DNA from: Branchiostoma floridae
Lineage: Eukaryota > Chordata > Leptocardii > Amphioxiformes > Branchiostomatidae
Direction of reading: 5' to 3'
Length of the DNA: 64,000 nucleotides
Assembly: GCF_000003815.2 (NCBI RefSeq)
Contig: NC_049980.1
Span: forward strand, 6,674,828-6,738,827
Positions 31,588 through 52,992 of this stretch are shown here, piece by piece. Under the pieces are notes generated by a model. It was not told where the DNA came from. It made no database searches and saw only the letters and a program-made list of their open reading frames with translations. The stretch's first letter is position 1. Each line of letters starts with the position of its first letter. The position numbers and the translations under genes are program-made.

Positions 31588-34500
31588 ATGGACCTTGACC
31601 AGACCCAGGCCATTAACTGGGACCAGTACGAGGACTCTACTGATGATGAACTGGACACTGATCCTAAACCTGTAAGAAAATAGAATACAAGTTTTGTTAC
31701 ATATTGTTCCAAGATAAATATGAAAGTTTATTTGCAACTTCACGGTAGAAGCAAATAAATTGACTATGGTAGAAGCATATAGGATACATACATGTGACAA
31801 TGAAGATGTAATTTGATGCTATCATAACAAAAGATTAAACAAATGCAGTATCTAATCTCTTTGATTTAAACAAGTTGCGTTTGACTTGTGGAAGACAAAA
31901 AGCCCCAGTTTTTCTACAATTTGTAAATTCATTCATTTGATTTTAACAGGAAAGCAGCTTTTTTTGTCTGTGAATGTGGGAAAGTTTGGATAGGTCTCGG
32001 TTACTCTTTAGGATAATAGTATTGTTATCTTCCTGTCTGTTTCAAGGTGGCCCACCTGAAGGTGATGTGTCAGAGAGGGTTTCCTGAAACTCTCTTTCCA
32101 ATCCACCAAGGAGACAACCTGATTGGCCGTAGTGACACATGTAATGTTCATGTTCCTCTAACGGTATGTATCATTGAATTTGTTTTTCTTTATATTTTGA
32201 TCTAGTCAGTAAGACTTTTGTGTCATGACTGTATAGTTTTTATGTAACAAATTTTTAAGTACGGTAAGGCCATGTTGATGCACCCGACATAATGTATGTA
32301 ATGTATGTATGTAAGGCCATGTTGATGAAGTTATATGAGTGACATCTGCATGTGCATCATTTTTTGTCCTTATCAAAAACAGAAAAAGTTTCCAACAATA
32401 CCGTAAATGATACAAAGATAAACACTAGCCACTGACAATAGACAAAAGATGCAGTTTGAAACGTCTGACGGTTTCCAAATAATATCCAGTTGTAAAAGAA
32501 ACTGTTACCTTTGGTATCTTATTACCTTGATGTCTAACATTCATTTACGAATGTTGTTTTGTTGTTTATTATTGTTTGCGTTCCACCCACAGTCACTATC
32601 AAAGAAGCATGCCTGTATCGAGGTTCGAGGAGACACCCACTTCATCTACGACTGTGGGAGTAGAAACAGAACCAGGCGCGGAGAAAAGGTTTGAAATCAA
32701 CAAGAGCTCATTTTTCATACACCACGTATGTGAACTGTGTACCTAAACTCAGGTCCAGATTTAGGTTCTGGTCGGGACTTACAAGTCCGGTCTAAAAATG
32801 TGTGTTAAGATTGACCAAAGATTTCTTTTGATCGATCCTACTTCATACAGAATGTGTTTGAGATGAAGACTTGTGTACTTGTACTGACAGGATTAGATAG
32901 TAAAATGACAGCTTTTGAACAAAGTCTGGTTGTGCACGCATTCTTGCCCTGAATACTGTGGTCAAACACTGACAACGTGAGAGAGTCTCTCGCTGATTGT
33001 GCAGTTGTAAATGCCATTACTGTTGTTTCATAACTCGAAATTGGGAAATATCTAATAGAAGTTAAATCACCTCCAGAAAAAAAGTTTGTTATTGGATATG
33101 CAGACATAAAATGTGTGTATTTTTTCATTGAACCCAGTGGTTAATTCAAATGGTTGTATGGCCACTATGGAGCCTTGTAACCAGTAAAAGAGAAAGTAAG
33201 TGATAGGATCCAGTTTAGCTCACTGAAAAGTTTTTCTTCTACTGTTCATTGCAAAAAAGATGGACTCTGTGTACAGATTTTACATGTTAATTGTCGCTCA
33301 CTCACTCACTATCCGGTTTAGCATCCGTTGTTCCCTGTCTTGCAGAGGTTGGACGTATTGTTAAGTCGTTTCGGTCTAATTGCTGCCCTCCATCCGTCTC
33401 TGTCAAGGGGGTTGGCTTTTTGCAGGTCCAGTTTCCTAAGATGTTCATTGTGCCAAGAAAATTGCCATGATAGCTCATTTTGACAATGAAGAGGTGAATG
33501 ACACAGCCAAAATTTAACCTCACAACTTCTAGTTCGAAAGGCAGGGTCGTTAAACACTGGACTTTGCATGCTATCAGGACGTTGTGCCATGGCAATGACT
33601 GACACATCTGACCCCTGCAGCTGTTCCTGGTGCCGAACCAGCGATACGAGCTGCAGCACGGTGTGAAGCTGTACTTTGCCGATGTCAGCTGTGAGTACGT
33701 CAGGGAAGAACAGCCTGCTGTCCAGGTGAGTGAGGAGAAACATGTAGAATCTCCAGAGTGCTTTACTTGTCTATGTCAGTGGACATTGGTGTTCCTCTGA
33801 CCCAGGGCTATCTCCAGCTTTAAGTTGTTTTTTTCTGTCCCACTTTTTGTTTAGGAGCTCATCTTGTTAATTTGTTATGTTATGGAATGGTAATCTTGCT
33901 GAGCTGTCATTTTAAGCCTGAAAAAACACAAATGTCATGAACAACTTTCTGTTACATTTCAGTAAGGCAGGTATCCAATGCATATTGGGGCATACTAGAG
34001 GGCTTGAGAATCCCTGCCTACCAACTACAGCCACAGGGCTTGAAATACTGGGTGCATGTGCACTAGGGCTGGGTATCGGTACAGTGTACCGGTACAAAAC
34101 CGGTTTTTCTTCTTGGACCGGTCCGAAAAAACCGGACCTGAAAAAAGTCCGTGGACCGGATGCTGGACCGTTTCGAAAATTCACGTCAGTAACAGACTAT
34201 CGCTACTGGCGATCTACGGTCCAAGACCAAGACTAATAATATATTACGACCAAACAGAGCTGCTACATGCAGCTGTAAATAATATCTCGGAGTTAAAACG
34301 GTTAAAGGATGTATCAATAGACGGAGATGTCAGTGAAGGTACTTTGTTTTGAGTAAGTTGTTTGTTGTTTGAGTATAGATAGCTATCATTCCCATCTACA
34401 GTTAAACACTCACAGAGACCTGTGTTTGAATCTATCTCTCCAAAATTTCATATGCATGACATAGTACTGCTGTTCTACTGTAATCAGGTCCAGGTTCAGG

Positions 34501-37500
34501 TCCGGACCTGGACCTAATCCTCTGGACCTGAACCGGACCTGGACCTGAATGTTCTGTACCGGTACCCAGCCCTAATGTGCACCCAAAATTGGAGATGTGC
34601 ACCCAATTTTTTTTCAGTGGGTGCACTGGAGCACCCAAATATGTTTGTAGGTTTACGTGTGTAAAGATATTAAAGTACACTGGTATACACCTTTTAGTAC
34701 ACAACATTTTGTTATAAATTTTTATATTTCTGCCTGTAGGAGTCTGCTGACGACTCAGGTTCAGAGACAGGCTCCGAGTCTTTGTTCACCGGACTGTCAG
34801 AAGAGCAGCAGCCAGACAACGACAAGGTACTTTTGATTCAATGGTCACATTTATTAACATGTACTACTGTTAAGAGAAGTGCATGGTAAAGACATCTTTT
34901 TGTGTACTGTAATTCACTTTGTCTTCTCGGTACCAAACTTTCACGGTCTGAGAAAATTTAACTTGTTCTCTGAACTAAATGTTCACGATAGCAGCAGGTG
35001 CGCATAAAAAAAGTCTGTGAATTATTTGTTATCTGTAATGATAAGTTCATGTTATAGTCGTCACAGTGAAAACCGTGAACATAAAAGTACAGTGAAAAAA
35101 TCAGGAATTACAGTATACAGCAACCAATATAAATTTACAAGTTTATAAATCCAGTCAATCCTTATCAATTGTCCGTACATGTAATATGCCGCAAAAGGTA
35201 CAATGTACAGCTATTTGCATAACCTTTTTGAGGCCGTAGGCATAGGGTCAGTGGATTGTTATCCTCTGCCTTTTTAACTCCCCAATTGTATTCAGGTAAT
35301 GCTAGTTCATGTCTATCCATGGGGTGACCTTTATCCATTGTTTGTTTCTAAACATGGTATTTTAGGGATGTCAGACTGTGGTTTCAAATTGTAATATTTT
35401 CAAATCATGCAGTTTGAAACCGTCATCTGTCGACCTGATCCCTAAAATAGATACCCTGTCGTAAAGACCAAGGGATATAAGTTACCCTGCGGATAAAGGA
35501 GAACTAGCGTTACCCATTTTTGCACCTTGGTGGAATGGTCAAAGCCAGATTAAGTGTCTTTTGAAAGGCCACAACACCATTGTCATGTCAGAGGCCAGTC
35601 ACCCTAACTATAACACTTTAAATGTAACCATTACACCAACATAAGGCTAAATATGCGGTAACATTGCCAGATAAATACAGTTTTTCTCGCTTTGTGAAAC
35701 CATTTTCTTACAGCCTAATCAGATTCCCAAGACCCCGGCCGGGCCCACCTTAGAACAGACTCGCCTGTATGTGGAGGAGTCTGACAGTGATGGGGAGGGG
35801 GGCGGCAGGAAGAGCATCAACACGAGCGACTTCATCGTACAAGACTCACAACCTACTCCACAACCTGGCAAACTGGGTAAGGCTCGAGTCTTTTTAACTC
35901 CGGGAAGGGGGAGTATTGTAGTTGGGGCTGTAATTCTGTTTGCAACTGTATCTCACAATCCCTTTGCTGCATTACTATGTACTTTGGCATGTCAACTGCT
36001 TATACATGTATATGAGAGATGATGCACATTGTTTTTGTTTCAGTTATATTTCAGAAAACACCCCATCTTCATTGAAATGAAAGTTTTTTTTTATGTTCAA
36101 AAATGAAAGGATTTCGTTGTTATAGTATGTTATCCCTTTCCACTTTGTTTCAGCTATTCCCTTAGTATTTGGCACTCCTGAAAAGGAAGAGAACCCCGTT
36201 CAGAAGTCATTTGCCATCCTTGAGAGCAGCGAAGAAGGTATGGAGGCAACCTTGTCTGAATTGCTTGTGAAGCAATGCCACCTAGTGGTTCAAGTTAAGA
36301 TTGCATGGCCTTCACAAACACTATAGATGTACTTTATCAAATTACCCCAGATGTCTGCCTTCCTTATCTCAGGGTTGACTTTGGTACATGTTTTGAGTTT
36401 TATTTGTGACCCGTCCTTCCACTCGACCTCGTTAAAAAGCATCATCACAAGGGGTGGGTACTGGTACAGAAAATTCATGTACAGGTACGGACCAGGTCCA
36501 GAGGATCAGGTACAGATCCAAACCTGAACCAGGACCTTATTGTTTGGGAATGGGCAATACTCAAAACCATAGTTCATTTTGCTACAAAAGAATCTGTTTG
36601 GTGGAGTATCCTATCTTCATGTAAACAACGATAACTGCCTCTGTTAAGTTAGCCCAAGTTTGACTCTAGAAAACTTGAAGTTGGTAAAAATGACTATCAA
36701 CTCTCCTCTACTTGTCCATTGCTATTTTCTTGGACCAATAAGCCTCAAAACGTGTGAATGCCTGCTGCCGTTGTTTCAGTTTAATCTGTTCATTTTCTAG
36801 TCAGTCCAACATCCGGTTCTCTACATTTTTTCAGGTCTGTTTTTTCTTGACCGGACCAACAAGAAATAAAACGGTTTTGTACTGGTACACTGTACCCCTA
36901 ATCCTTGCAGAGACAAGCCATTCAGATTAAGTAAAGGCTTTGACTTGGTCTGACTAGTTCCTTTTCTCATACACAGATGATGATGACAGGCCCCTCCTGG
37001 ATGACACAGACATTGCTGGTGCACCCACTCAGGCGTACGCACTCAACAGCTCGGTAGACACGGGAGACGATGAGGATTCTCTCCCCGACATCGCCATGGA
37101 GCCTACCCAAGCCTACGTCTTAAACAGCTCACACGAAGAGGACAACTTTGCTGACTGTCCTACCCAAGCTTATGGCCTGGACAGTGACACAGATATAGGT
37201 AAAGTCATTTCATAAAGCAAACACACAGAAAAATTATAAGACCCAAATTTTTTGGCTGTTTTCGTCAGCCTTGTTTACAGAATGGACTCATCCACTGCAA
37301 ATTCCAGGACTTGATGTTAGAGCCACGTGGTGACTACAGCAAAGGGTCGTAAGTACCAGATAACCTGTGTCGCCCCCCGTCTCTCCCGCTACCCTCCCTG
37401 CAGTCACATGGCTCTAACATCACATACCGGAAGTATCAGTTAGAAGGGTCCAGTCTGTGGTCAGCCAAAAGTGACAAACTTGACAAGCCCCAATTCTTCT

Positions 37501-40500
37501 ACATGTATGAGCTGGTTATGATTAGTTCTGTTGTCATTGATAATACCACTGCATGTTAGCATTTTTTTAAATGACCCATTTTTTAAAGACCTGATCTTCC
37601 TTCTTGTACTTTTCATCTTTATTACTGCTTATTTCTTTGCTGGCTAAATTTCAGAAGAAGCTGATGATGGAACTTCTGCCCCCACCCAGCCAGTTGAAGG
37701 ACATACATCTGAAAGGATCACTAATGGAGGTACATATTTGTTGTTCTTAGTTAACGTCCTCCTGTGCAGAGCTGAATCCTTGTTGTAGAAATTCCTCTGT
37801 ATTCATCTCTGTTCCCCCTTAGATTCTGATGACCATATACAGTGAAACTTGTATAAGCGACCACGTCCGTAAGACGACCATCGGCCTATTACGACCGCTT
37901 TTGGCCGGTCCCGATTTTCCTCCCCATAGACACAAGCATTAAGCAACGTGGCCAAAGCGACCACTTGTCTTCTGTGACCGCGACCACCCCGAATCCGGTC
38001 CGCCCGCGACCGAAATGTTGCCGAAGACGACCGCGTCATTTTCAAGTGTGTAGTGGCCTCGATTTTTGATGATATCCGGCGGGAAATCCGCTAAAATCGG
38101 CTTGTGTTTTGGCGAAGAAAACTTGCCGAAACGACTGCGTCATTTTCAAGACTGTAGCAACTGCCGATATTTGATGATAACTCGGGAGAAATATCGCTAA
38201 AATTGGCTTATGTTTTGGCAACTAAAATGTTACCGAAACCACTGCGTCATTTTCAAGGGTATAACAACATCATTTTTTTTTATTATAACTGCCGGGAAAT
38301 TACGGCAAAATCCGTCTGTTTGGGTTCTGTTATCGCGCCGAGCCAAAATCAAACATGGCGCCCAAGAGGTCAAACGGTGTCATTGGGAAAGTCCACTGGA
38401 GTGTAGGTAAAAATGTTGCGTGCGTTGTTATTGTACTCTAGATTTAAACCCTACAAAATGCAAATTTATTTTCATAAAACTTGTTTGAAGTAAAGGTAAC
38501 AGACATAAAATATCTTTATGACTTTATAACGCATTTTATTAGAGAATAAAAGGTGTCTGTGTGTCTTCTTGAGAATCTGCTCACCCTTGCTTCTAGTGAA
38601 GCGTCGATTTGTCAACATCTTCATGATTAGAAGCGTCGGTGGGGTTAAACTTGTTTTTCTCGGCAAATTTTAGCCTTCTGGGCAGCGTTGAGACTTTAAG
38701 ACCCTCGCCAGAAGAGAAACAAACTCACACACATTATTTTCATGGGTAACGTCGTTGAAGTGAACCATTTATTTTTCTGCCGTGCTGCCGATTTGAAAGA
38801 AGGTTCCCGTCTTGTCGGGCATGTGTGCGCGTGCTTTTTGTTATGGCGGTAAGCTCCCCAACTTATTTCTGGCCCGTTGGCTGTGATTCACAAAGTAAAG
38901 ATAGGCAATTAACGTTGTTAACACGAAAATCGCATTTTAAAACGCTCGTGGGGCGTCGGGTTCTCCACCGAAAACAGCGATGTTTTTGTAAGCAATATGG
39001 ACCATTGTCTTGACGGTGTCGCCTATTCACAAGTTTTTGACAGACAATACCGGCGGGGAAAATGACGCTGCTCGAGCTCCGGCTACAAAAAGCTACGAAA
39101 ATTTGAAAGAAAAGCCCTAAATTTTGGAAACGTTTCAATTTTACATCAGTTGGTATAACAATACTATATGAATCATACAAGAATACAACAGTGATAATGT
39201 TTCTCATGTGCAAATGTACAGGTTCGTGGAATTAAACTATTTTAAAGACCATTCACTTTGAAATCATTGTGTCTGTCCAATCTTGTCAATTTTTCTTTCT
39301 TTGCACAAGAAGACCACGTGTCTAAAACGACCACTTTGCACTGGTCCCCAGGGTGGTCTTCTTAAACAAGTTTCACTGTACATGTATTTTCTTACACTTT
39401 TCAAACTTTGTTCACTTTGTGTGTGCAGACAGGGCAGCTACACAGGAGTGCAGTGAGGAGGATATACATGTACCTACAGACGAGGTCACACAGGTGAGAA
39501 CAACTTTAATGTGTTTGTAGAAACAGTCCAAATATGTAGCAAAGCCAAGGTAATATCCGCAAGTATCAGGTGTAATTAATGATAATATGCAGAATGCCAA
39601 AAATGTTACAAAATTTAAGTGTTACTTGACAATTGATATGAAGTTGAAATATTTTCCCGCAAGTATAACTTATCAATTTCTTTTTCCTTATTGTTTTGAA
39701 TTATGATATTTGTGACCCATTTTTACATTTCTATATAATCTTCCTTTTCTAGCCATTGCAAGACTCCATTGACAGGAATGAACCAACTCAAACTGTGGGG
39801 GACACCTTACCATTCACCTCTGCAGACCAGGAGGAACCTCCTCCCACCTTACCTGTCCACCCCCACGATGAAATGGAAGGTACCCTGCCTGTTGCAGCCC
39901 TAGGGGATACTGGGAAGGCAGACGAACAGGCAACCCTGATGATTCGCAGCGAGGAAGCGACCCTAAGGTCCGAGGGAAGTAACGGAACAAACAAACCACA
40001 GCTGAACAAGAACAGAGCAGACAGTTCTCAAGGATTTGTAACGTCAGAAAACGGCAGTAAACCAAAGGCGTACCCATACGATACAGATTCAGAAACTGAA
40101 AAGAACAGGAATGCTTTTGAGGAAGCTACCCAAGCATATGCTCTGGATGAAGAAGGTATAGAGGAAGAGATGACACAAACCAGAGGACAAGAAGAAAGGA
40201 AAGAACACCAGATTGACAATGCAGAGGAATCAACTCAAGCATACAAAAGTGAAGAAGAAACCTTAGAACCAGAGACACAGTCTTTTGAGGAAGGAGAAGA
40301 AAAAGGAAATGAGGAGTCAACCCAAGCTTACAACAGTAATGAGGAAGACACAGTTGAAGAGACGCAAGCATCCGGTGATTCAGACGTTGAACAAGGAAAA
40401 GACTCAAACATCGCAGAAGCAGAGACTCAAGCCTATGGTGATGATGAAGACACTGATAAAGGAAGAAAAGCCGTCAGCAGTACTGATGTTGATGATGACG

Positions 40501-43500
40501 ACTTTGCCAACATGGAGACACAGGCCTATGGAGGGGAGGATGAGGAGATGGATGACTTGGCCAATGCTGCAACTCAGGTTTGTCTATTGTACTGTATGTA
40601 TACTGTACTTGTCATATAGTAAAACGTTTTACACAGTACCCAATAGCCTGGATTCCATACCCCAACCTCAAGATATATCTTTCGTGTTGGGGTCTGGTAA
40701 CATGGCTGTAGAAAGGTTCTCGAAGGCCCGTTGATCAGTGGGAGGAGAACCTAGGATTGATGACCACTCTCACCACAGGTAGCCAGCTACAACACACCAC
40801 AGTTGGTCAGCAGGCTATCACAGTAGCGAATCAGCTACGTTATGGATTCAAAAAGGACAGTTGGGGGTCTTTAACCAATCATGGCAGGGGTGTAATTACC
40901 TCCTGCTGATCCTGTGTTGTTCTATTGGTGGGGTTTTTTGCCCACTATAAGGTGCAAAATTGAGAAGAGTTCCTATCCCATCCGGCCAGACCCCTGCACG
41001 ATAGATACTTGAGATCGGGCTGGGGTTTGGTAACCAGGCTAAGTACCCAAAGTAAGGCACTTACTCCAAAAAGTAGTACTCAAGCAACTGGATATGGTTT
41101 TGGAAACGTTTTTTGACTGTTACCAAAACCATATCCAGTTGCTTGAGTAACTACTTTTGGGCATATCTTGTTACCTGGATGTCTAATTTACGTCGACGTA
41201 CATGTAAGGCAGCTACTAACAAGATTTTACACAGTTTGATCCCTCTCAAGTTGTACTGACCCCAAGTTTATGTCAGTAAGAACCAAACAACTGCAAACAA
41301 GAAGTCTTCTGTCCTTGCAGTGTTTGCAAGGTATAATGTCATATTTTTTGGCAAACCAAAAAATTGAAATACATTTGTACAATCTGGTTACAAAGCTGTA
41401 AAAAGCACACAGTAGATTTTCAGGGACCTTGACATTCCTTGACAATGTGATCAACCTAAATTTGGTATCATAGCTAACGTTCCATTGTATCCTGTGATGG
41501 GAAGTAAACTTGGTCCGACACTTTCATATCAGGGACTTCATTCCTAACACAACACATTATAGCATTCTTAACATAATGTTGTAGAGTGAAATTACACAGT
41601 TAGGTTGTCTCTACTGTTATTCATAAAGTAGATTAGTTCTTTATTATTGTTAGATATCAGCAACAGCAACTGCCATTTTTGTACATGTTGCCATACATTG
41701 TACACCTGTTACAATAATAGCACAATAAAGTTCTGTCTACATGTTGTTTGCAGGCCTATGGCTTGTTCCAGCAAGAAGATGAAACACCGGAGACAGATGA
41801 GATAGCCACTGCTGAGACCTTGGCTTACGGTGAGGAGGACCTGATGGCGACACAGGCATGTGGTGTGGACACTGACGAAGAACCAACACAGGCAGAGACA
41901 GAAGAGTCCCGAGACATTGCTGATTCACCTACCATAGCTTATGACGATCAGCTTGGTGAGACAAACATTGCTGAATCACCGACCATGGCTTACGAGGACC
42001 AGCTTGGTGAGACCCAGGCTTATGGAATTGAAGAGGAGAAGGAGGAAGTTCATGAAGAAGAAGAGGTATGTTTATGTTTATGTTTTTATAGTGATTAACG
42101 TATTATTTCTTTTACAACTGTAGAGTAGAAAGTTGGTCTCTGTTAAGCAATGGTTGTAAAGCGCTGATATAGATCATGGCTTCTTTAATCCCTCTAAGTT
42201 TCTTAACACATACATATAGAGTCATCTGGACAATCAGTCACACTGGATGAAATGTCCCAGAGAGGTTAAAGAAATATATCTACCAATATATCAGAGCTTT
42301 ACAACCATTGCCTAACAGAGACAAAGGGCACCATAGACTTTATGCAACTTATGATCCACTGCTCACCAAGTCACATGTGCTATCTACATAATGTGACAAA
42401 GACTGAAGCTGTTCAGTCAAATTTTCGTGTTGGAAATTACGGTTCAACTTTCCCAGTATGTTTATTTGACATGTATGTGATGTGTTCTGGTGTCTGTACA
42501 GGTTGTTCCTGAAACACAAGAGGATGATGGAGACGCAGCCACACCCATCCCCCTCCCCCCGCTGAAGTCAGCCCTACACAGTCCTGACCACCCCAGGAGG
42601 CAGGTCAACAGGGTCGGCTTTACCGACCGCGTACGGGACGTCGAGCCAGCTGTGGCTCCCGATGACCAACTTGTGGAGACTCAGGCTTACGGAGTAGCAG
42701 AGGATGAACAGACTGATGCAGTTGTCAAGGTTAATTAATATGTATAACAAAGAAGTGTTATTTGCATTATTCTGCATTTACAGTAACCAGTTATGATAGA
42801 CTCTCCATCATAACTGGTTACTGTAAATGCAGAAACTTTCACGGTGTCTAATATTTGTGGTTTTTGTGGTGGCCACTTCACCGCGAACATAAAACCACTC
42901 AAATATTTTTCCATGTCAGTAAGAGACTACAGTACATGGTGCTACCGGCGTGAACTTAAAACCACTGCGAAAAGTCTTTTTCCCGCTACCAGGAAATCAA
43001 ATCCCTGCAAACTTAAATACATTTACAGTATTTGGTTAGCAAGCAGAAACAGCAGTTGATACTGAGGATGGTACCCAGGCTAAAAGCAAGTACCAGTAAC
43101 TTTGAACTACACAACTATACATGGCAAGAATAATTATCTGTGGGACAGATTCTTCAATATCTTGCATTTGATCAAACAAGAAGCAAATCTTGTAAAAAGA
43201 CTGGAAAAGAAAGTTCTACTTTACTTTCTTGAACATTCTTGTCAGTAAGCATTATAATGGAAATATTTTCTTCAGTTAAGAAAAAACAAGAATGAAAATC
43301 TTTGTGTAGGAATTTACATACAAAGGTTTTATGGGGGGGTTTCTTGATTTTTCTCAACCTTTCTTAATAGTTACAAGAAACTCTTTCTCTCCATAAGAAA
43401 AAAACAAGAAAAATAAGAAAAAAGATTTTTTGTAGTGTACAACCAGATCTGCTGTTTTTAGTGAGAATTCGATGAATACAGTAATTGAGGTAAATTGTGA

Positions 43501-46500
43501 TTTGCTTTCCTCCATAGGCCACCACTGGTACAACAGAAGTACAGGGTTCAGGACAGGATGTAGAACCAGCTGCTGCTTCTGAATCTGACGATCAGCTTAT
43601 GGAAACTCAAGCTTATGGACTCGAGGAAGGAGAAGAGAAAAGTGCAGTCAACCTGGACACTGAGGTACGACAATGTTTTCATTGTTACTGGGTGGGCCAG
43701 CTTCTTTTTATTAACAACTAGGGGGCTGAATTTGGAGGAACCTACGATTGGTAGAGCTGAATTGCAAGGGTCTATGATGGCAACCTGTATGCAGCGCTTA
43801 GTGACTTTAATACAAGAGTAACTGGCCCAGTTGCGGTCATAGGACTTTGAGAATATGAACCACTGACATCGAGAAGGACCCTTACTCCTTACCACAAGTC
43901 TGGTGGGTTTTTAACATGCTCGATGTGTAGAAGTCCACTGTGTCCTGCTGATGCAGTGGTCTGGACACTTTGCATCTGCAATCAGTCTTTCTTCAACGCT
44001 CTCCACTTCATCCTGTTCATCGTAAGGTTCCTTAGCTCCTGTAGTTTTCTTTCTGACCGCAATGGTTTGAGTCCTCTGTCCTCGAGTTGTAGCCCTCCTC
44101 AAAAGTGGGACCTACATTTTATGTCTTATCAGAAGGAGAAGACAGCTTCTCATTCTCATCTGGTTGTCTTCTTCAAATGAGCTGTCTTCTTCAAATTCCA
44201 GGAAGAAGAAACAAAGGAGGAGGGTCCAACTGCAGGAGCTAAAGCTCTGAAAGTAGACAAAAGCCAAGAAATGGAAGAAGATGTACAAGCAGGTAAAGAA
44301 GTCATTGTGTCTCAGGCATTACGTTATTGGTTATGTAAGTTAAGGCCATGTTGGTTTGATTATATGAATGACATCAGTGTGCACAGCAACGAAGCAGCTG
44401 CAAAATGAGCAAAGAAATGCCGTAAACTGATACTAATGTAACAGTTGTAGAATGCCAAACTCCATTCCAAAGTCAAAGAAGAAGATGTGAACGAACAAAT
44501 GAAGTATCTATTTATCATTTTGGTATTCCTTTCATTTTTCATTCTATTCCGTATTCTTTGGTATCAATTGTCATTTGTGAACATTCCAGACCACTTAGAT
44601 CTCATAATGAAGACAACTTTTTTTGCCAAACTTTTTTATTTTGCATGCTGGCACAAGTTTTTGGGATCTCAGAGGATGTCATCCATATAACCAAATCAAC
44701 ATAGCCTTATGTATACTAAATTTTAATGGTGCTTTGATTTTTCCAAGAGATGACTATAGCTTCACAAATTCTGGAAAATCTATTAATTCTCCTTTCCAAT
44801 GGATACTAATATCTTTCCTTGATATGAAGTAACATGGTACATGGTATTATTCTTTTCCTTCCAGGAAGCAAAAAAGGAAGGCAGAAACGTGGAGGTAAAA
44901 TTCCATCCGAGGAAAAAACTTCTCCAGAGTTGGAAGACACACTCACAAGGAGGCGTACCAGAGGTCACAAACAAGACGATTCAGAAGACAAGGATGGTCC
45001 AGCTGTTAGTCTGCCAGCTGAATCAGCTGCAGAAAAACCAGTAAGGTTGGGACGTGGGAGAAGGTCCGCGCCTCCAAAAGCACCTGTAGAAGGAAAAGGA
45101 GCAGAAGATAAACCTCAGTCTTCCAGGAGAGCTGGCAGGTCCCAGCAAGAAGAAAATGAGAAGAACGTCCAGGCAGGCAGCAGCAATAACACCAAGAAAC
45201 CAAAGACAAAGGGGAGGAAATCTGAGCCAGCTCCAAGCACAAGCAAATCTGATCACAAGGAAGAATCTACTAAGACTGTTGATGCAACAGATGACAACCA
45301 AGAGGAGGTACCAGACAGAGTACAAGACATTGCAGAGGGAGCGACAATTGGGAGGACAACAAAGAAAGCGCGCGGAAGAAAATCTGAACCAGCTCCAAGC
45401 ACAAGCAAATCCGATGACATGGAAGAAACTACTAATACTGTTGATGAAACAGATGACAACCAAGATACAAACAGTGTACCAGATATTGCACAGGGAGCGA
45501 CAACCGGAAGAACAACAAGGAAAGCGCGTGGAAAGAAATCTGAGCCAGCGCCTGTAAGCAGTGTTGTAGAATCAACCACTGCTACAGGTACTAGGGGCAA
45601 AGGCAGAAGAAGAAAAGACAATGACACAGAAAGTGTTGCGTCGGACGTTACAGACGACCTAGAAGAGGCCAGGCCTTCAAGACGATCAGTAAGAGGCAAG
45701 CAGAAAGAAGACTCCAAAGCTAAACAGGGAGGAAAACAGGAAGGTAGAAGGAGAACGAGAGGAAGAGCAGCTAAGGATGATGATGATGAAGAGACAGGTG
45801 ATGGAGATGAGCAAACTGATGTGAATGGTGCTGAAAATATTAGCAGTGATGCTGCAAAGGGTCAGGTTGTAGAGGAAGATGCAGCTCCAGAACATTTACC
45901 AGCAACCAGACGAGGTAGAGGTAGGAAGAGTGTTGCAGCATCTACGAGAAGAGGTAAAGCAAGTGCTGTGGAGAAAAGTGCAGAGGACTCCGTGGAAAGT
46001 GCAAAGAGTGTTGAAAATGAAGTGCCAAAGATAGTTGTAAGTGAAGAAGCCCCTGGACCAAGCGGCAGACAGACAAGAAAAAGGAAAGGAGCAGCTGTCG
46101 AACTTGAAGAAAACGAGACACACACTGCTGAAGACAGCAAAGTTAAAGAGATAGTTGTAAGTGAAGAAGTCCCTGGACCCAGCGGCCGACAGACCAGAAA
46201 AAGAAAAGGGATGGCTGTCAAAGAAAATGAGACACACACTGATGAAGATAGCAAAGCTCAAGAAGCTGAGGGAAGCCAGAAGACCAAAGGAAAGAGAGGA
46301 CGACAAGCATCCAAGGAAGAAACCAAGGAAACAGCAGAAGAGAACAGTCAGCCAAGGGGAAGAGGAAGGAAAAAGACTACAAGTGGACAGAAGAATGAAG
46401 GGGGAGAGGAAAATACATTGGTAAGAGTGTAGTATTTACCCACTTTGTAGTCATATTTTAACACAACTTTTATTTTTGTCAAGCAAATGCTAGTTATTGT

Positions 46501-49500
46501 TGCAGTCATCAAGTACATGTTGGGACAGTTGTTCAGACATCATCTTTTAAACCTGCAACAAGCTCTTTTCTTTTATCTTTATCATTTTCACTCTGTTAGA
46601 GCACTGCATCACAGTCTACACAGTCCAGCAGTGCCACAGAGAACGCTGATCTACAGGTACATCTGTCCTCTCTACAGTTAAACATGTGTTAATGATTATT
46701 GTGAAAATATCTATAAGGACAGGGCTCGAAATACCATCTGCATGATATGCAGGTTAGTGCAGGTGAAATTGGAGCTGTGCAGGTATTTCTGATGTCTACC
46801 TGCACCTAACCTGCACTGGTCCATGTACTGGATTTTATGCATGAATGTCATATGATGTAGGTGTATGTGGATTGTTATTACAGGGGGTAGCTGCATTGGC
46901 TGTTAGCACCTATAAAGTATAAAAGAAAAAATAATGTTTCCTGAACAATTTTAGTATGATCCGAACTTCCTAAATTCAGAGTGGTGCATGTAAAATCTGG
47001 CTGGTGCAGGTAATGTTCAATGTTACCTGCACCAGTGCAGGTATGCAGAAAAAAGTATTTGATTTGACTATGCGGATGGCATCCTCCAGGCAATGGAAAA
47101 CTGATACAAGGCTGAGAAAAGAATAAAAATGGGCCAAATAGAAGCAACCTTCATTTCTAATGGCCAGCAAAAAATTACAAATGACTGGTCTTACAAACAA
47201 GCATTTACTGAACAGTAGTTTCTTTCTTTAATGTGTTCTTGTACATTTTCTTGGAATACTTTTCTTGGAGTATGTCATCCATATAATTGAATCAAGGTTG
47301 CCCTAACACATGAATTTTTTCAAGCCTACACCAGTTGCTGCCGCAAACATGTTCCAAGCACTAGAGATATTTTGAGACACGGGTATGTTCTTCATGTTCA
47401 TTAGACAAGAGACATTGTTAAGAAAAAGAAATTGTCGTGACCAGTATAGCATTCAGCTTTCTTTACATCCTTTCTGCAGGAAACCACCACAAGCCGCAAA
47501 CGTGGCAGGAGTGGCCAAAAATCAGCCGAGAGCGCAGCACCACAAGTCTCAGCTAAACTGACTCCACCTGAAACACCTGCAGGTTTGTAAATGTAACAGA
47601 TAATGCATTAATGTACAGAATTCAATGGGGTGTATTGAGTATCACCCGAGGTACCAGCCTGACTATGGGAGGGATGGCCCAGAGGCCAGCTGGAGATCCC
47701 ACCTACTGGACACCATGTTGTACTTTATTTATGTCATACCTGCCCAAGAAAACACACGTGTAAAATGGGCCAGGAATTTTTCGTGTGTTCCAACCAAACG
47801 TGGAACAACAGCAATTCCAACATCCGAGTTGAGTTCAGCGTTCAATTTTGAGAGTGCCATACTCGGTGCACTCGCGTGTTCTAACTATTCTATTAAAGCC
47901 TAATAGTATGTGATAATGTAGATTTCCATGAGATAACTCAAGTTATCACCCAGTCCAGAACACCTGTATCAAACGTTCTGTCACGGTGCAGGTATGACAT
48001 GATATTGGACTAAGTCACTTGGTACAGAAAGATTAACTTGCACCAGAAAAAGAAATCATGGTTCTTTGCTCTTTGCTCTACCTTTAGTTAATCTTGACAA
48101 AGGTCTAATTGACCCTTGAGGGCTGTTTTTCATAAAGGTGGAGAGTATACAGCTAAACTCTGGTCATTCAAATTTTTCCTTCCCAGTTTTAAGCAGTCCC
48201 AGCCAAAGGACCAGGAGGGCTGTCTCAGGGGACAGTAAACCCAGGATAATGTTCACTGGTGTGGTGGACAGGCAAGGAGAGAAGGTTAGTTTAACTTAGT
48301 ACTGTAGGTCATGGCATTGTCTATAGAGCTTCCTCACTGTGATGCATACCTAGCTGCACACTTGATCTGTGTGCTTAAACCTTTCACTTGTACATGTAAC
48401 TGTAAAATTGTGTAGGTACAGGTCCTGACTACAGTCTGCCTGTACCTGTACCCAAACAAACTGAATCACTAGTGGGCACCACTTTTTCAGACTGAGGATA
48501 AGTAAGTCGTTTCTTAAAGATGACAATTTTGATAACCTGCCAGTTGAAGATTGAGAAAAGTTACGAATTGACTTGTTTTGAGAATCAAATGCGTAGCTTT
48601 TCATATAGAGGTCATAGTTTACCTCTAATTGTCTGAAAAGACAGATAGTTGACCATGATTGTTTATTTATAGTTCTGGATTTGTGCCTTAACTATTGTAC
48701 CTGTGCCTAAGATTTGTTAAGGTAGACAGGTCTACTTACTATTACAACTATATATTTGCAAGCCCTTGTCATTGTCTTTCTTATAGTTTTAATATCGATA
48801 AATAGTTTATTATGAGTGGATTTATGCCTGTTGTGCGTAAGAGAGATGATGATTTAATGACCTGCCCAAAATAGTTATAATTAGTAGCATCTAATGATGA
48901 AAGAACAAAAGATTTTCCTGGGATGAAGTGCTTTATGAGGTGAATGTTAGCATCTGATAGCAAATTTGATGGATGGATTTATTTCTTTAAATCATATTAG
49001 AATGCAACTACATGTACATGTATCTTGAATTTGTATTCTAGGAGTCTCTAGTGGCTAGATTTATCGTTCTGTCTGTTTTGTTGAAGTGATGACAAATATC
49101 ACCACCTGTAAAGGTTTTACGATGTGATCCTTTGTGTCATACTGTAAGACAGGAAATGTTTGCAGTCGTTTTATGTTCGCGATGACCTTGTCTCTGTGAA
49201 ATAGATAATTATATGCCTCTGCCAAAATTTTGTACTGTCTTCAGGCTTCCTCCCCTCAACCGTACACTTAAAAAACACAAACACTCCATTTTTTTCCTTG
49301 ACGCAAAATTACATTTTGTAAATCACACCTAACATTTCTCCTTTTACAGTAATTCACTGCTAGGATTTTGTTCTGCATGATTTACTCATAAATCTGTTGT
49401 GTATGCTCTCTAATTGTGTCCTTAATAGATAGTGAAAGACCTGGGAGGTGATCTGGTGGACTCTGTCATTAACTGCACACATCTGGTGACAGACAAGGTG

Positions 49501-52500
49501 GGTATCATTTTCAGTTTATCGAGTTACTGTTGTACCCAGAATGATGAAACTGCTTTATGAAATGGATGAGTTGACATACTAAGTATTTATGAAAAGAGCT
49601 ACTACTCTCACAATATGATTTTTACTTAATGAGCTCACTGCTCAGTTTTGTAGACATAAATGAAGAACAGTATTGGAACAGCCAGTAAAGTTGTTTTTCT
49701 TTCTAGTAAACACTAGTTTGGGTAGAAATTAATGAAAGATTAAGTTGAGTTCAAGACCATGAGTTAGAATAGTGCAGAACTGGGCTCTAGCCAGCTCAAA
49801 ATTTTTTTCCGTCAGCCAATTCCCATTGTCGCGAAAATGAGATTATTGTATGCAAAAGGGCTCCGACACACTTTGTCAACAATAATAACAATAGCAAAAC
49901 TAACAGTGTGTGGACGATGTCCCCAAGCCGCCTGTAGCTTCCACCAAGGATTTTTGTCCGTTAAGGTTGACGGATTGGTTTTTAAAGTTTTCCGTCACAC
50001 GCAGCAAATTTCTGTCAATTGACGGAAAAACGGACGCTGTCTAGAGCCCTGGTGCAGAATGTCCCTTTTGTTCGGCAGGTGAGGAGGACAGTGAAGTTCC
50101 TGTGTCTGCTGGCACGAGGTCAGCTCATCGTCAGCACAGACTGGCTGGACAGGTGTAAGGACTGTAGGACCTTCCTAGGTAAGGTTGGACATACATGTAT
50201 GAGGTAATGGTAGCAAGGGTGTTTGGCACAGAACCCAACAATCCTGATTCCAAATTCCCTGACATGCTTTGACATGGTGCCCACTTCACATTGACTTTGG
50301 TTGAGGTCCGATATTTAAGGAAAGCCTCACCTCAAGTATGTTAAATAGATTCTGACTGCATTTATTGAAATGGTAGACTACGTGATCCTTTCCTGTGTAA
50401 GTAGATGAAATGAATCTGTCAACATGTGCAGCTTGTGTGCCTCCTGTAATGTCAGTACCCCTGTAGTGCCTGTACCCCTGAAGTGCCTGTACCCCTGTAG
50501 TGTCTGCACCACCTGTAAATTCTGTATTTCTGAAGTGTCTGTACCCATTGTCATTTTATTGTGAAAAATAGAAATGCTCCATAATTACTACAAACTGTGT
50601 CTTATCACTGTGTACAAGCTATGTCTTATCACTGTCAATGATAATCATGCATGCTTTTCAGAAACCAAGGCATGCTGTACTATAGCTCTAATAAGAATAA
50701 GCCATACATTGTTTCTACAGATGCTGCTCCCTTCATGATAAAGGACCCAGCCACAGAAAAGCAGTACAACTTCAGTCTGGCCACGTCACATGAGAAGGCA
50801 CGTGATGCTCCCATGTTGGAGGGGTACAGACTACACGTCACTGCTGGGGTGAGACCTGACCCTACACAGATGAAAGGTAATACATTTTCTATGTTCTATG
50901 TTCATTGATAGTTGATGTGCATTACTACAGTAAACTGTAATGTTGGTTTTATGTTTGCAGTTTTTGCAGTACTTTCTTCACTGTCAACTCAAGACCACTG
51001 TTGAAATCCTTGTTCTGTCTTAGCATACCTTTTAATTTGTTTGATTGCTTTATGTAATTGTTACATTCTACACATCGTACAGTATTGTGATAGTAGAAAA
51101 GTATGTTGTGTACATTGTACTCATATCCACTAGGTAGTTAGATCAGTGACAATTGGTCACGTAAATAGTGCAAAATGCGACTTTCCAACTGTGGCCGTCC
51201 CTTGCTGGTGATTTCCAACTGGCTGTCCGTAAAGGTTTTGGTGTTTCCGATTTCTATAGCAGCATGCATATGTGACTGTAGTACTAACACAAACTCAAGA
51301 CCACTGCAAACACTGACAAAACATTTTCTCCTTACTGTGAAATGAAATCATCGTGAACTTGAGTGTGTTTACAGTTTGTTGTCACTTGCAGTTAGCCTTT
51401 GGGTAGGAATTTGTATTAAAGATTATTATCATTATATTGAAGTAATAAGGAGTATGTAATAATGATTCAAGAAACAACAATTCATCACTGCCAAGAGGAT
51501 ATGAAGAAATCTTAACCAAAAAACAGATAGTGAGGAAATTACTATAAATTAAGAATTTGCCATGAAGAATGCACCTTCTTGAATTCTAAACAGAAAAAGC
51601 CAAAAATGTTAACATGTACAAATGTAGAATACAACGCTGTGTATACCATATCATCTGATGTAGTATCCCAATGCACAGGAGGGCTAGGACAGAGGGTGAT
51701 GCGGAATACATGTACATCGTCATGTATTTTGTTCATGTCATACCCAAACACATATTTCTTTGATGGCTGTGCAATACCAAAACATACAGACCAGTCCAGA
51801 GGACCTGTTTTGACCACCGTCCCATCCCTGGTATGCAAAATATAGAAACTGTGTGTTGCTGTTCCCTATTCAATACTAGATTAAGTGTCCTCACAGATAT
51901 TACATGTTCTCTGTCTCCTTTCCCAGATATTATCAACTGTGCGGGAGGAGAGGTACAATACTTCCATTCTTGATAGTGTTTGCTTTTGACCTTTTGCAAA
52001 TTTTGATACCAAGATTCAATTTCAGTTTAATGTACAGTAAATTCTGTCTTTGTTTCCTATAGCAATGGTTTTGTTTGAAGACTTTGTGTCTTTCTACCAC
52101 TGTTCTTTGCTCAGAAATGTTTCGATTTTCATGTGCTCTAATACAATTTATTTCACATCTCTTTGTTTTCTCCATGAAAAGTTTCTAAAGACGATGCCGA
52201 AAACGCACACAGACGGGACAGTAGTGGTGTCGTGCGAGGCAGACAGGAAACAGTGTGACCCGGCTCTGAAGGCCGGTATCCCTGTCGTCACTGCAGAGTT
52301 CCTCCTCACGGGAATACTGCGCCAGGAAGTGGATGTCGAGGCATATCCTTTTGCGTAAAACCTCAAATAATATGGTGTCTTGGGATTTCAGGGTTAGACA
52401 AGTCCATTGGCCCAACTGCGAGTAGAAGCACTAATCAGGCAAATGCATGTCTTACTGTACCTGCTCGATTGGTCAAGCAGGTGTGAATTTTCCATGGGCA

Positions 52501-52992
52501 GATATAGGTAGATATTTGTCCACTAGTCTGACTTGACAGCACTTGGCATCCACACAAAGTGGAAATTATCAAGCAAGCTGAAATAAAAAGTACTTGGTCT
52601 TGTAAATAAACACTGTTACTTTTTATGAAAAAGAGGATCTACTTGCTGCAAGTAGAAATGCATAGAAATAGTTATGAATGATGAAATTCAGGCCAGTAGA
52701 TTTTTTATGTGTTAGTGTATTTTCTAGAATTTGCCAAATATCCAACCCTTGATTTCATTTAGAATTCTAAAAGTTCTCTGTCATGAAATGAAAGATAAGT
52801 ATTCTGCCAATGTATGCTATTTTTCACAGTTATCTTGAGTCGCATTGAAACTTCTGAAATTACGAATTTTACAGAGATAGATCTTTAACCTGGTCCACTC
52901 ACAGACTGTTTGCAGACTTTGACAGAGGTTCCAACAAGAGGAAGAGTACTGCACCGGCTGCTGACACTGGCAAGAGGTCCAGGCGCCGATAG
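31588..52992 (+). CDS. MDC1: Mediator of DNA damage checkpoint protein 1, 25 coding exons
   Basis: Nuclear scaffold that binds phosphorylated H2A.X at double-strand breaks and recruits ATM, NBS1 and RNF8. Exons: 31588-31671, 32047-32163, 32593-32688, 33621-33725, 34740-34826, 35714-35876, 36154-36237, 36977-37198, 37655-37729, 39429-39493, 39753-40577, 41754-42065, 42502-42729, 43518-43664, 44202-44292, 44865-46420, 46600-46656, 47480-47582, 48187-48284, 49429-49497, 50079-50178, 50721-50876, 51927-51952, 52182-52354, 52905-52992. Total 1708 residues (human about 2090). Order: N-terminal TQAINWD (human has TQAIDWD), FHA (about 29-134), acidic TQ-rich region (about 246-870), basic repeat region (about 901-1419), two BRCT domains (about 1490-1690), basic tail. 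The start follows an acceptor directly (CAG|ATG). Identity is secure from both ends; some internal exons rest on frame and splice sites only. Confidence 0.93.
32047..33725 (+). other. MDC1: MDC1 FHA domain exons
   Basis: Three phase-0 exons encode the forkhead-associated phosphothreonine-binding domain. Visible FHA residues: Gly-Arg in DNLIGRSDTCNVHV, the SLSKKH block, and Asn in YDCGSRNRT, in that order and at usual spacing. In human MDC1 this domain binds phospho-Thr4 of another MDC1 molecule and ATM. The N-terminal TQ at residues 6-7 (DQTQAIN) corresponds to that Thr4-Gln5 site. Confidence 0.9.
34034..34650. mobile_element. CAGGGCTTGAAATAC-ended element hosting a nested hAT-like element
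   Basis: Left end CAGGGCTTGAAATACTGGG; arms repeat GTGCACCCA. The middle is replaced by the insert 34064-34574. The right end is not clearly preserved (about 34650). Confidence 0.6.
34064..34574. mobile_element. hAT-like element with exact 8-bp duplication
   Basis: Inverted ends TAGGGCTGGGTA and TACCCAGCCCTA bound 511 bp. An exact 8-bp duplication ATGTGCAC flanks it (34056-34063 and 34575-34582). Subterminal repeats are AGGTCCGGACCTGGACC-like. It lies in MDC1 intron 4. Confidence 0.9.
34905..35118. mobile_element. TACTGTAATT-ended miniature element
   Basis: Starts TACTGTAATTCACTTTG and ends GGAATTACAGTA; inside are ACTTTCACGG and CCGTGAACATAAAA. The same words occur at 42818-43030, 50925-51380 and 57050-57170, a loose dispersed family. 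Confidence 0.55.
35296..35515. mobile_element. GCTAGTTCACCTTTA-ended miniature element
   Basis: Inverted ends TAATGCTAGTTCATG and GGAGAACTAGCGTTA, with GGGTGACC near the left and GGTAACTT-like near the right. The interior carries GTTTGAAACCGTC and TGATCCCTAAAATA. Same family as 28958-29155 and 55718-55935. MDC1 intron 5. Confidence 0.7.
36449..36900. mobile_element. hAT-like miniature element in MDC1 intron 7
   Basis: Ends AAGGGGTGGGTACTGGTACA and TGTACCCCTA are imperfect inverted repeats; AGGTCCAG subterminal repeats as in 15150-15525. It ends 76 bp before exon 8. Confidence 0.65.
37840..39378. mobile_element. pogo/Tigger-like non-autonomous element
   Basis: Inverted ends CAGTGAAACTTGTATAAG and CTTAAACAAGTTTCACTG, flanked by TA on both sides, as in Tc1/mariner-pogo elements. 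Length 1539 bp. Near the left, three diverged copies of a roughly 100-bp unit follow each other (about 38030-38280, word ACTGCGTCATTTTCAAG). No transposase frame. It fills MDC1 intron 9 and ends 50 bp before exon 10. Confidence 0.85.
40644..41041. mobile_element. TAGCCTGG-ended element with 9-bp duplication
   Basis: Ends TAGCCTGGATTCCATACCCC and the approximate complement ending CCAGGCTA bound 398 bp. The 9-bp flank AGTACCCAA is exact on both sides (40635-40643 and 41042-41050). MDC1 intron 11. Confidence 0.8.
41066..41160. repeat. Head-to-head pair of a dispersed repeat, forming a 38-bp stem
   Basis: 41066-41103 and 41123-41160 are near-perfect inverted copies (AAGCAACTGGATATGGTTTT and complement) separated by 19 bases. 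This is two copies of the CATATCCAGTTGCTTGAG repeat facing each other in MDC1 intron 11. Confidence 0.85.
42772..42832. repeat. Perfect 25-bp hairpin in MDC1 intron 13
   Basis: CTGCATTTACAGTAACCAGT and five more bases (42772-42796) are followed, after 11 bases, by their exact reverse complement (42808-42832). It begins 43 bases after the exon 13 donor. The right arm continues into a TACTGTAAATGCAG-ended miniature element that ends near 43029. Confidence 0.85.
44341..44708. mobile_element. TAAGGCCATGTTG-ended miniature element
   Basis: Ends TAAGGCCATGTTGGTTTGAT and ATCAACATAGCCTTA are inverted repeats; ATGACATC follows the left end and GATGTCAT precedes the right. Partial copies at about 32265-32345 and 47150-47320. 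MDC1 intron 15. Confidence 0.7.
44865..46420 (+). other. MDC1: MDC1 basic repeat exon (PST-like region)
   Basis: One 1556-bp exon encodes 518 residues rich in Lys, Arg, Ser, Pro and Glu. It holds RGRKSEPAPSTSKSD repeats (at least two near-exact and one diverged), and two VVSEE(A/V)PGPSGRQTRKRKG repeats near the end. RGR and RGRK cores resemble AT-hooks. Position and the TRGRK/PSTST flavour match the PST repeat region of vertebrate MDC1, which binds chromatin. The unit sequence is lineage-specific. Confidence 0.85.
46720..47058. mobile_element. CAGGGCTCGAAATAC-family element, right end truncated
   Basis: Left end CAGGGCTCGAAATACC, arms with GTGCAGGT/ACCTGCAC; the right end stops at AGTATTT without the GAGCCCTG. 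MDC1 intron 17. Confidence 0.7.
47632..47990. mobile_element. Reverse copy of the 31141-31557 element
   Basis: Shares with 31141-31557, in reverse order and complement, the words around TTTATGTCATACCTG, AACATCCGA and AACACCTGTATCAAACGTT. MDC1 intron 18. Confidence 0.6.
48410..48730. mobile_element. Degenerate hAT-like element (18518 family)
   Basis: Shares AGGTACAGGTCC, CTGTACCTGTACC, AACAAACTGAA and GATGACAATT with 18518-18927 in the same order. Ends are eroded. MDC1 intron 19. Confidence 0.55.
49780..50051. mobile_element. hAT-like element next to an MDC1 splice acceptor
   Basis: Ends CTGGGCTCTAGCCAGC and a diverged GCTGTCTAGAGCCCTG; an exact 8-bp duplication GTGCAGAA flanks it (49772-49779 and 50052-50059). 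Same family as 19132-19481. Its right end is 27 bp before MDC1 exon 21. Confidence 0.9.
50450..50535. repeat. 17-bp tandem repeat in MDC1 intron 21
   Basis: The word AGTGCCTGTACCCCTGT repeats about five times with small changes. Confidence 0.75.

What the first reader, a model, noticed from the sequence alone, without database searches (positions are those of the whole stretch)
36977..43664. Expanded TQAY array in MDC1: a candidate multivalent RNF8-docking platform
Twelve T-Q-A-Y motifs plus one TQSF are encoded by exons 8 and 11-14, three times more than the four TQXF sites of human MDC1. Nearly all carry Tyr, not Phe, at +3, a residue the RNF8 FHA domain is known to accept. Decayed copies (TLAY, TIAY, TMAY) show birth and loss of units, and the DQLxETQAYG context suggests spread by short duplications. 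Such an array could turn ATM signalling into graded ubiquitin-ligase recruitment. Motif count is seen; function is inferred.
Basis: partly seen in the sequence, partly recalled or inferred. Interest (0 to 1): 0.8.

Follow-up and report, generated by a model that had tools for sequence, protein, structure and literature searches.

The report
Amphioxus MDC1's repeated damage-signal docking sites
A DNA-repair scaffold protein of the lancelet carries thirteen copies of a short phosphorylation motif that probably recruits ubiquitin-adding enzymes to broken DNA; the array is real and conserved, but it looks like the old animal pattern rather than a lancelet invention, and humans simply keep fewer copies.

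Summary
My spliced model of the window's MDC1 gene (25 exons) has twelve TQAY and one TQSF in exons 8 and 11-14; one TQAY is split across the exon 11/12 junction. Shuffles of the region give 0.16 such motifs on average and never more than 3. The Branchiostoma floridae record P0001 has the same thirteen.

The docking interpretation is well supported but untested. In 107 MDC1 proteins an aromatic residue sits at +3 after 42.4% of TQ but 4.8% of SQ, as expected for a phosphothreonine reader. The same genome encodes RNF8 and a Pellino, both keeping phosphate-contact residues.

Larger arrays occur in molluscs, crinoids and a nemertean, and TQAYG is already common in cnidarians, so neither number nor Tyr is a lancelet novelty. 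TLAY and TMAY are unchanged in four lancelet proteins, not decayed. One short duplication is visible in the DNA.

Verdict: a new member of a known kind. A lead: Pro(-1) sites tend to come first along the array.

The parts
31588..52992 (+). MDC1 gene, 25-exon coding model, 1708 aa
   Evidence: P0001 of B. floridae matches over the whole length except a 40-residue stretch in exon 16 and the last junction
31603..31614 (+). N-terminal TQAI site (aa 6), counterpart of the first TQ of other MDC1 proteins
   Evidence: TQ in the first 25 aa in 109 of 120 proteins, +3 I/L/V in 106 of the 109
32119..33677 (+). FHA domain (exons 2-4)
   Evidence: Pfam FHA 6.6e-11; best solved structures are MDC1
36977..37198 (+). 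exon 8: three PTQAY sites (37027, 37105, 37162)
   Evidence: all three unchanged in four lancelet proteins
37183..37198 (+). SDTDI(E) motif at the end of exon 8, running into exon 9 (aa 315)
39753..40577 (+). exon 11: five TQAY (40128, 40233, 40320, 40425, 40518), TQSF 40275, and the first half (TQ, 40572) of a sixth TQAY
41754..42065 (+). exon 12: second half (AY) of the junction TQAY, TQAY 42012, plus TLAY 41817, TQAC 41850, TIAY 41931, TMAY 41982
41914..42013 (+). 51-bp tandem duplication carrying TIAY and TMAY
   Evidence: 88%; 87%
42502..42729 (+). exon 13: ETQAYG at 42679
43518..43664 (+). exon 14: ETQAYG at 43605
48187..52354 (+). C-terminal tandem BRCT region (exons 19-24)
   Evidence: best match human MDC1 2azm, 1.4e-55; Pfam BRCT families

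Best explanation
Exons 8 and 11-14 encode an acidic stretch of MDC1 with thirteen ATM-type TQ sites whose +3 residue is Tyr (twelve) or Phe (one). MDC1 sits on damaged chromatin through its BRCT domain; ATM phosphorylates the threonines; each pTQxY/F becomes a docking site for the FHA domain of the ubiquitin ligase RNF8, and probably also of Pellino; many sites give redundancy and avidity. Shown here: the gene, the motifs, their conservation, the threonine-specific aromatic at +3, and both reader genes in the genome. Inferred: phosphorylation, binding and recruitment in amphioxus. Speculative: a graded response. The array is the likely ancestral animal form with lineage-specific copy number.
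For: 13 motifs against 0.16 expected. Aromatic at +3 after 42.4% of 1947 TQ, 4.8% of 763 SQ, 2.5% background, in 107 of 120 proteins; TQ share above SQ share in 104 of 107 proteins, below in 1, tie or no site in 2. Twelve copies with twelve codon sets and saturated third positions. With sites defined in one lancelet protein, 53 of 56 motif columns invariant in the other three against 409 of 588 others. RNF8 FHA and RING exons and Pellino FHA exons in the same genome. Human TQXF bound by RNF8 and PELI1/2 (PMC11884936); TQXF-to-AQXF nearly abolishes 53BP1 nuclear bodies (PMC6858307).
Against: No phosphorylation, binding or transcript data for amphioxus. Twenty-four hymenopteran MDC1 proteins show no TQ/SQ contrast (16 of 340 against 16 of 232), and Tubulanus has one aromatic among 44 TQ, so the code is not universal. 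In lancelets the SQ control is small and not zero (4 of 26 SQ). That RNF8 accepts Tyr at +3 is recalled; the text read describes Phe +3 for RNF8.
Confidence: 0.78

Rival explanations
1. The main reader of the array is Pellino (FHA plus RING-like E3 ligase), and RNF8 uses only part of the sites.
For: PELI1/2 FHA binds all four human TQXF phosphopeptides, and a +3 Tyr peptide at 0.42 uM (PMC11884936). A Pellino FHA is encoded in this genome with the residues that correspond to PELI1 Arg104, Ser135 and Arg136. Six of 13 sites have Glu at -1, the residue that makes a salt bridge in the PELI1 complex.
Against: Only 1 of 13 sites has an acidic +4 residue, the feature credited with tight Pellino binding. 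Hymenopteran MDC1 lacks the aromatic code, although insects have Pellino (recalled, Drosophila), while Aedes and Drosophila lack RNF8 (PMC6849265); RNF8 in Hymenoptera was not tested.
Confidence: 0.14
2. A plain ATM/ATR target cluster: phosphorylation adds charge, and no FHA domain reads the sites.
For: 22 TQ in 625 acidic residues is a TQ-rich cluster, and 9 of the 22 lack the aromatic.
Against: A plain cluster gives no reason for an aromatic at +3 after TQ but not after SQ.
Confidence: 0.05
3. A neutral repeat: the copies are by-products of local duplication without function.
For: One 51-bp duplication is visible, and some neighbouring units resemble each other.
Against: Codons of the twelve copies are randomised while the peptide is kept; motif columns are more conserved than the rest of the region; the +3 aromatic excess after TQ is seen in cnidarians, molluscs, echinoderms, hemichordates, lancelets, vertebrates and the nemertean Lineus.
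Confidence: 0.03

Closest known systems
TQXF cluster of human MDC1 (T699, T719, T752, T765), docking RNF8
   Same: Same protein, same stretch between FHA and BRCT, ATM-type TQ with an aromatic at +3; amphioxus exon 8 (MEPTQAY) resembles human T719 (DEPTQAF)
   Different: Thirteen sites instead of four; twelve have Tyr; Gly follows in 7 of 13; sites spread over about 590 residues (aa 263-851) instead of 70
The same human TQXF sites docking Pellino 1/2 (PMC11884936)
   Same: An FHA E3 ligase that prefers +3 F/Y; a Pellino gene is present in this genome
   Different: Binding not tested here; acidic +4 largely missing in amphioxus
TQxF repeats of invertebrate MDC1 and TQx-hydrophobic repeats of plant BCP4 (PMC11014961)
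   Same: Multicopy TQ repeats in proteins with a C-terminal tandem BRCT
   Different: The passages read give no copy numbers for invertebrates and do not mention Tyr; plant BCP3/4 lack the FHA domain

Membership tests
MDC1 | N-terminal FHA domain | tested here: met
   Pfam FHA 6.6e-11; best solved structures are MDC1, 1.6e-14
MDC1 | C-terminal tandem BRCT | tested here: met
   human MDC1 2azm 1.4e-55, ahead of PAX-interacting protein 1 at 3.7e-35
MDC1 | binding of gamma-H2AX | not testable with these tools
   no assay; pocket-region residues vary between the lancelet proteins
MDC1 | N-terminal TQ site with aliphatic +3 | tested here: met
   TQAI at aa 6
MDC1 | SDTD motif | tested here: met
   one SDTDIE at aa 315 in the window; present in all four lancelet proteins
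MDC1 | PST repeats (mammals only, PMC11014961) | not tested
   not examined
TQXF-type RNF8 docking array | TQ with an aromatic at +3, in several copies | tested here: met
   13 sites, 12 Tyr and 1 Phe
TQXF-type RNF8 docking array | Phe at +3 in the strict sense | tested here: not met
   1 of 13 has Phe; vertebrate proteins in the sample have 138 Tyr and 157 Phe, so Phe is not strict in vertebrates either
TQXF-type RNF8 docking array | RNF8 present in the species | tested here: met
   FHA and RING exons on contig C1
TQXF-type RNF8 docking array | phosphorylation by ATM and binding to the RNF8 FHA | not testable with these tools
   needs experiments
Pellino docking sites | Pellino with FHA present in the species | tested here: met
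   PF04710 in four exons; PELI1 9if9 2.1e-27 for one exon peptide
Pellino docking sites | acidic +4 (tightest human site) | tested here: not met
   1 of 13 sites acidic at +4; an affinity feature, not a requirement for binding

The most novel reading that the evidence does not exclude
The MDC1 array is an ancient, ordered docking scaffold built from an ancestral unit like [P/A/E]TQAYG. Its copy number drifts widely (0-1 in some proteins to 27 here) while a threonine-specific +3 aromatic code is kept by selection. Pro(-1) units tend to come first, in lancelets, molluscs, echinoderms, a nemertean and vertebrates, and in lancelets Glu(-1) units come last, marking two classes of site for two ligases (RNF8 and Pellino).
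Probability: 0.25. Interest if true: 0.65.

Novelty: new member of a known kind. Interest (0 to 1): 0.42.

Why it matters
Human MDC1, with four TQXF sites, is the textbook case, yet it sits toward the low end of the animals sampled here, and its all-Phe code is probably not the ancestral form. Animals with 13-27 natural copies, the lancelet among them, would allow a direct test of how site number and +3 residue set RNF8 or Pellino recruitment. The TQ/SQ contrast gives a sequence-only sign of where an FHA reader is in use or lost.

Tried and rejected
Tried and rejected: chance occurrence; a bare ATM cluster without an FHA reader; the FHA domain of MDC1 itself as reader of the array, because the N-terminal TQ has +3 I/L/V in 106 of 109 proteins whereas the array has aromatics (that the human MDC1 FHA binds this N-terminal site is recalled). 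Against that control: in Hymenoptera the N-terminal site has Tyr at +3 in 16 and Phe in 1 of the 23 proteins listed. TLAY and TMAY as decay products. A general Glu(-1)-last rule: it fails in vertebrates, and Ala(-1) versus Glu/Asp(-1) runs the other way in molluscs (2 for, 14 against) and vertebrates (9 for, 39 against). I saw no mammal among the listed rows, so the human count rests on PMC11884936. Huen et al. 2007 and Kolas et al. 2007 are not held. Paper searches for amphioxus with MDC1 and with RNF8 gave one listing each, neither on this motif by its title; MDC1 with TQxY gave none. An outline of Pellino evolution was looked at in passages only (PMC4484250) and says nothing of amphioxus.
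Full report
What is there. The window carries a complete MDC1 gene on the + strand. I picked and joined 25 exons, every intron GT-AG, giving 1708 residues with an FHA domain (Pfam 6.6e-11; best solved structures MDC1) and a C-terminal tandem BRCT (best match human MDC1 2azm, 1.4e-55). The database protein P0001, named MDC1-like of Branchiostoma floridae, is the same in the alignment except for 40 residues of exon 16 that it lacks and the last junction; neither touches the array. Its listed contig length, 35,136,500, equals that of the contig on which the window lies.

The count. Twelve TQAY and one TQSF lie in exons 8 and 11-14. One TQAY is made by splicing exon 11 to exon 12, so unspliced frames show only eleven. 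In the 625 residues of exons 8-14 there are 22 TQ; 13 have Y or F three residues on. In 20,000 shuffles of the same residues the mean is 0.16 and the maximum 3.

Is the peptide under selection? The twelve TQAY copies use twelve different codon combinations. Their pairwise third-position difference is 0.61 against 0.58 expected if codons were drawn from this gene's usage, so synonymous sites look saturated while the peptide is unchanged. Four Branchiostoma proteins (floridae, floridae x japonicum, lanceolatum, floridae x belcheri) have 13, 16, 14 and 14 sites. Sixteen aligned sites are TQx[YF] in at least one of the four and eleven in all four. With motifs defined in the floridae x belcheri protein alone, 53 of 56 motif columns are invariant in the other three against 409 of 588 remaining columns (Fisher p = 1.6e-5).

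Birth and loss. TLAY and TMAY are the same in all four proteins and so are not decaying. TIAY belongs to a 51-bp tandem duplication (41914-42013; 88%, 87%) and is present in two of the four. Sites that differ are TQAC (aa 674) and TQAS (aa 570) in floridae, TQAD (aa 527) in lanceolatum and TQGS (aa 556) in the belcheri-hybrid protein, each aromatic in most of the others. The units in exons 12, 13 and 14 share DQLxETQAYG but match at only 34-42 of 57 bases, so those duplications, if such, are old.

Other animals. Three searches with BRCT regions found 314, 943 and 125 proteins and list the best 120 each; together they gave 283 different proteins. In one search I used 107 of the 120 proteins, leaving out 13 isoforms or near-duplicates. 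After TQ the +3 residue is Y or F in 42.4% of 1947 cases; after SQ in 4.8% of 763; after TE 1.5%; after TD 1.0%; background 2.5%. No other offset tested after TQ exceeds 4.9%. Per protein, 104 of 107 have the higher share after TQ, 1 the lower, 2 tie or lack sites. The proteins are related, so these are not independent counts. FHA domains are specific for phosphothreonine (stated in PMC11884936), so the contrast is what an FHA reader would leave. In the lancelets alone the SQ control is small: 4 of 26. As an internal control, the N-terminal TQ is found in 109 of 120 proteins with +3 I, L or V in 106 and Tyr in 2; but in Hymenoptera that site has Tyr in 16 and Phe in 1 of 23 proteins listed.

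Not an amphioxus expansion. TQx[YF] counts among the proteins used: lancelets 13-16; molluscs 2-27 (Mercenaria 27); nemerteans Lineus 18 and Tubulanus 1; echinoderms 4-22 (Antedon 22); five cnidarians 4-11 (Nematostella 11, Rhopilema 10); 52 vertebrates 3-8. Human has four (PMC11884936). Among the later rows the contrast holds in 31 amphibian proteins (155 of 423 TQ, 8 of 253 SQ), 37 reptile proteins (122 of 279, 2 of 230) and 8 sharks (52 of 73, 1 of 121), some being isoforms of one species. Gly at +4 follows 55-63% of sites in cnidarians, nemerteans, echinoderms and lancelets, 15% in molluscs and 13% in vertebrates. Tyr at +3 makes up 97% of cnidarian, 84% of lancelet, 76% of echinoderm, 47% of vertebrate and 38% of mollusc sites. 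TQAYG with Tyr is therefore the likely ancestral state. Crinoids, Mercenaria, Lineus and Tubulanus show their own near-identical units, which points to repeated independent duplication.

Departures. Tubulanus has 44 TQ, one with an aromatic and 25 with I, L or M at +3, many of the rest with V, in short repeats. Twenty-four hymenopteran proteins, chosen by me from the rows, show no contrast: 16 of 340 TQ, 16 of 232 SQ; the one hemipteran has 0 of 6. Aedes and Drosophila lack RNF8 (PMC6849265, passages), which would fit RNF8 as the main reader. Against this, RNF8 in Hymenoptera was not tested, and PMC11884936 says that Drosophila MU2 has TQXF.

Readers in the same genome. The best hit, C1:12195325-12195540, is 52% identical over residues 411-481 (RING and tail) with E 8.5e-17; the next is at 2.2e-8. 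Upstream on the same strand two exons continue each other on the RNF8 FHA (C1:12180504-12180632 and 12181729-12181872), and a further RING exon lies at C1:12194667-12194756. The joined FHA peptide matches RNF8 2pie (1.3e-16) and 2csw (1.5e-16); the next protein is at 9e-4. The Ser-Arg pair that contacts phosphate in human RNF8 (Ser60, Arg61; PMC11884936) is kept as SRKH. I did not build the whole RNF8 gene. A Pellino FHA in four exons is at C1:25978963-25984309 and keeps the residues that align with PELI1 Arg104, Ser135 and Arg136.

Mechanism. In human cells ATM phosphorylates TQXF, and RNF8 and PELI1/2 bind through FHA domains (PMC11884936: introduction and two of three parts of the results read); mutating the TQXF threonines nearly abolishes 53BP1 nuclear bodies (PMC6858307, passages). 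The same working is the best explanation here. That RNF8 takes Tyr at +3 rests on recall and on the mixture of Y and F in vertebrates; for Pellino a +3 Tyr peptide is measured (0.42 uM). Graded recruitment is speculation: nothing here separates a rheostat from redundancy.

A lead. Sites with Pro at -1 lie before sites with Glu or Asp at -1 in 24 of 30 informative non-vertebrate proteins (3 the other way, 3 neutral; 0 of 2000 within-protein shuffles as high), but in vertebrates 9 for and 11 against of 24. Pro before Ala holds more widely: summing the groups, 56 for and 7 against of 68, vertebrates 18 for and 2 against of 23. Ala before Glu/Asp is reversed in molluscs and vertebrates. Tandem duplication makes neighbours alike, related species are not independent, and the test was made after seeing the pattern. 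In human, T752 (Ala at -1) pulls down much RNF8 and little PELI, and T765 (Glu at -1, Asp at +4) more PELI than RNF8, so a two-class array is worth testing.

What is in print. PMC11014961 (passages and discussion) analysed 119 metazoan MDC1 proteins and reports TQxF repeats in invertebrates; PMC11884936 says TQXF is multicopy in all vertebrate MDC1 and present in some non-vertebrates. The kind is therefore known. In the paper searches made I saw no count of Tyr sites, no TQ/SQ contrast and no polarity, but I saw listings and parts of papers only. An older survey held that MDC1 arose with vertebrates (PMC3969565, passages); the lancelet, mollusc and cnidarian proteins here do not agree.

Noticed in passing
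37183-37198 running into exon 9 at 37655 (aa 315): SDTDIEEA, an NBS1-type SDTD motif, follows the third TQAY and is kept in all four lancelet proteins; single SDTD motifs also occur in several echinoderms, Ptychodera and Mercenaria among the 18 proteins checked, although PMC11014961 reports only TQxF repeats for invertebrates.
   Followed up: partly
41817, 41982 (TLAY, TMAY): Threonine sites without Q but with the same -AY are unchanged in four lancelet proteins; they might be FHA sites for another kinase.
   Followed up: no
1-2455 and 56158-56558: Satellite-like tandem arrays: 206 bp x 5.6 (98%), 214 bp x 6.1 (96%) and 54 bp x 7.4 (95%).
   Followed up: no
45218-45549 and about 46050-46220 (exon 16): A 162-bp coding tandem repeat and a 40-residue repeated stretch present in my model and in the floridae x japonicum protein but missing from P0001: an allele or gene-prediction difference.
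   Followed up: partly
52340-52910 (last junction): My GT-AG model reads EAYPFALFADF where the four database proteins read EAHRLFADF; the true last intron is unresolved.
   Followed up: partly
52182-52354 (exon 24): The BRCT stretch PKTHTDG varies between lancelet proteins (PKAYKDG, PRALADG, PSTCRDG) where human MDC1 has PRSYKPQ; from recall this stretch holds gamma-H2AX contact residues.
   Followed up: partly
P0047 Tubulanus polymorphus MDC1: 44 TQ, with short repeats such as DEPTQAV and DEPTQPM and only one aromatic at +3: a natural switch of the +3 code.
   Followed up: partly
P0251-P0283 hymenopteran MDC1: The N-terminal TQ site has Tyr at +3 in 16 of 23 proteins listed, where other animals have Ile or Leu, while the array contrast is lost.
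   Followed up: partly
37946-39370 (intron 9): Repeated blocks of about 105 bp (families D3, D5, D10, 106 bp x 2.3), perhaps part of a mobile element.
   Followed up: no
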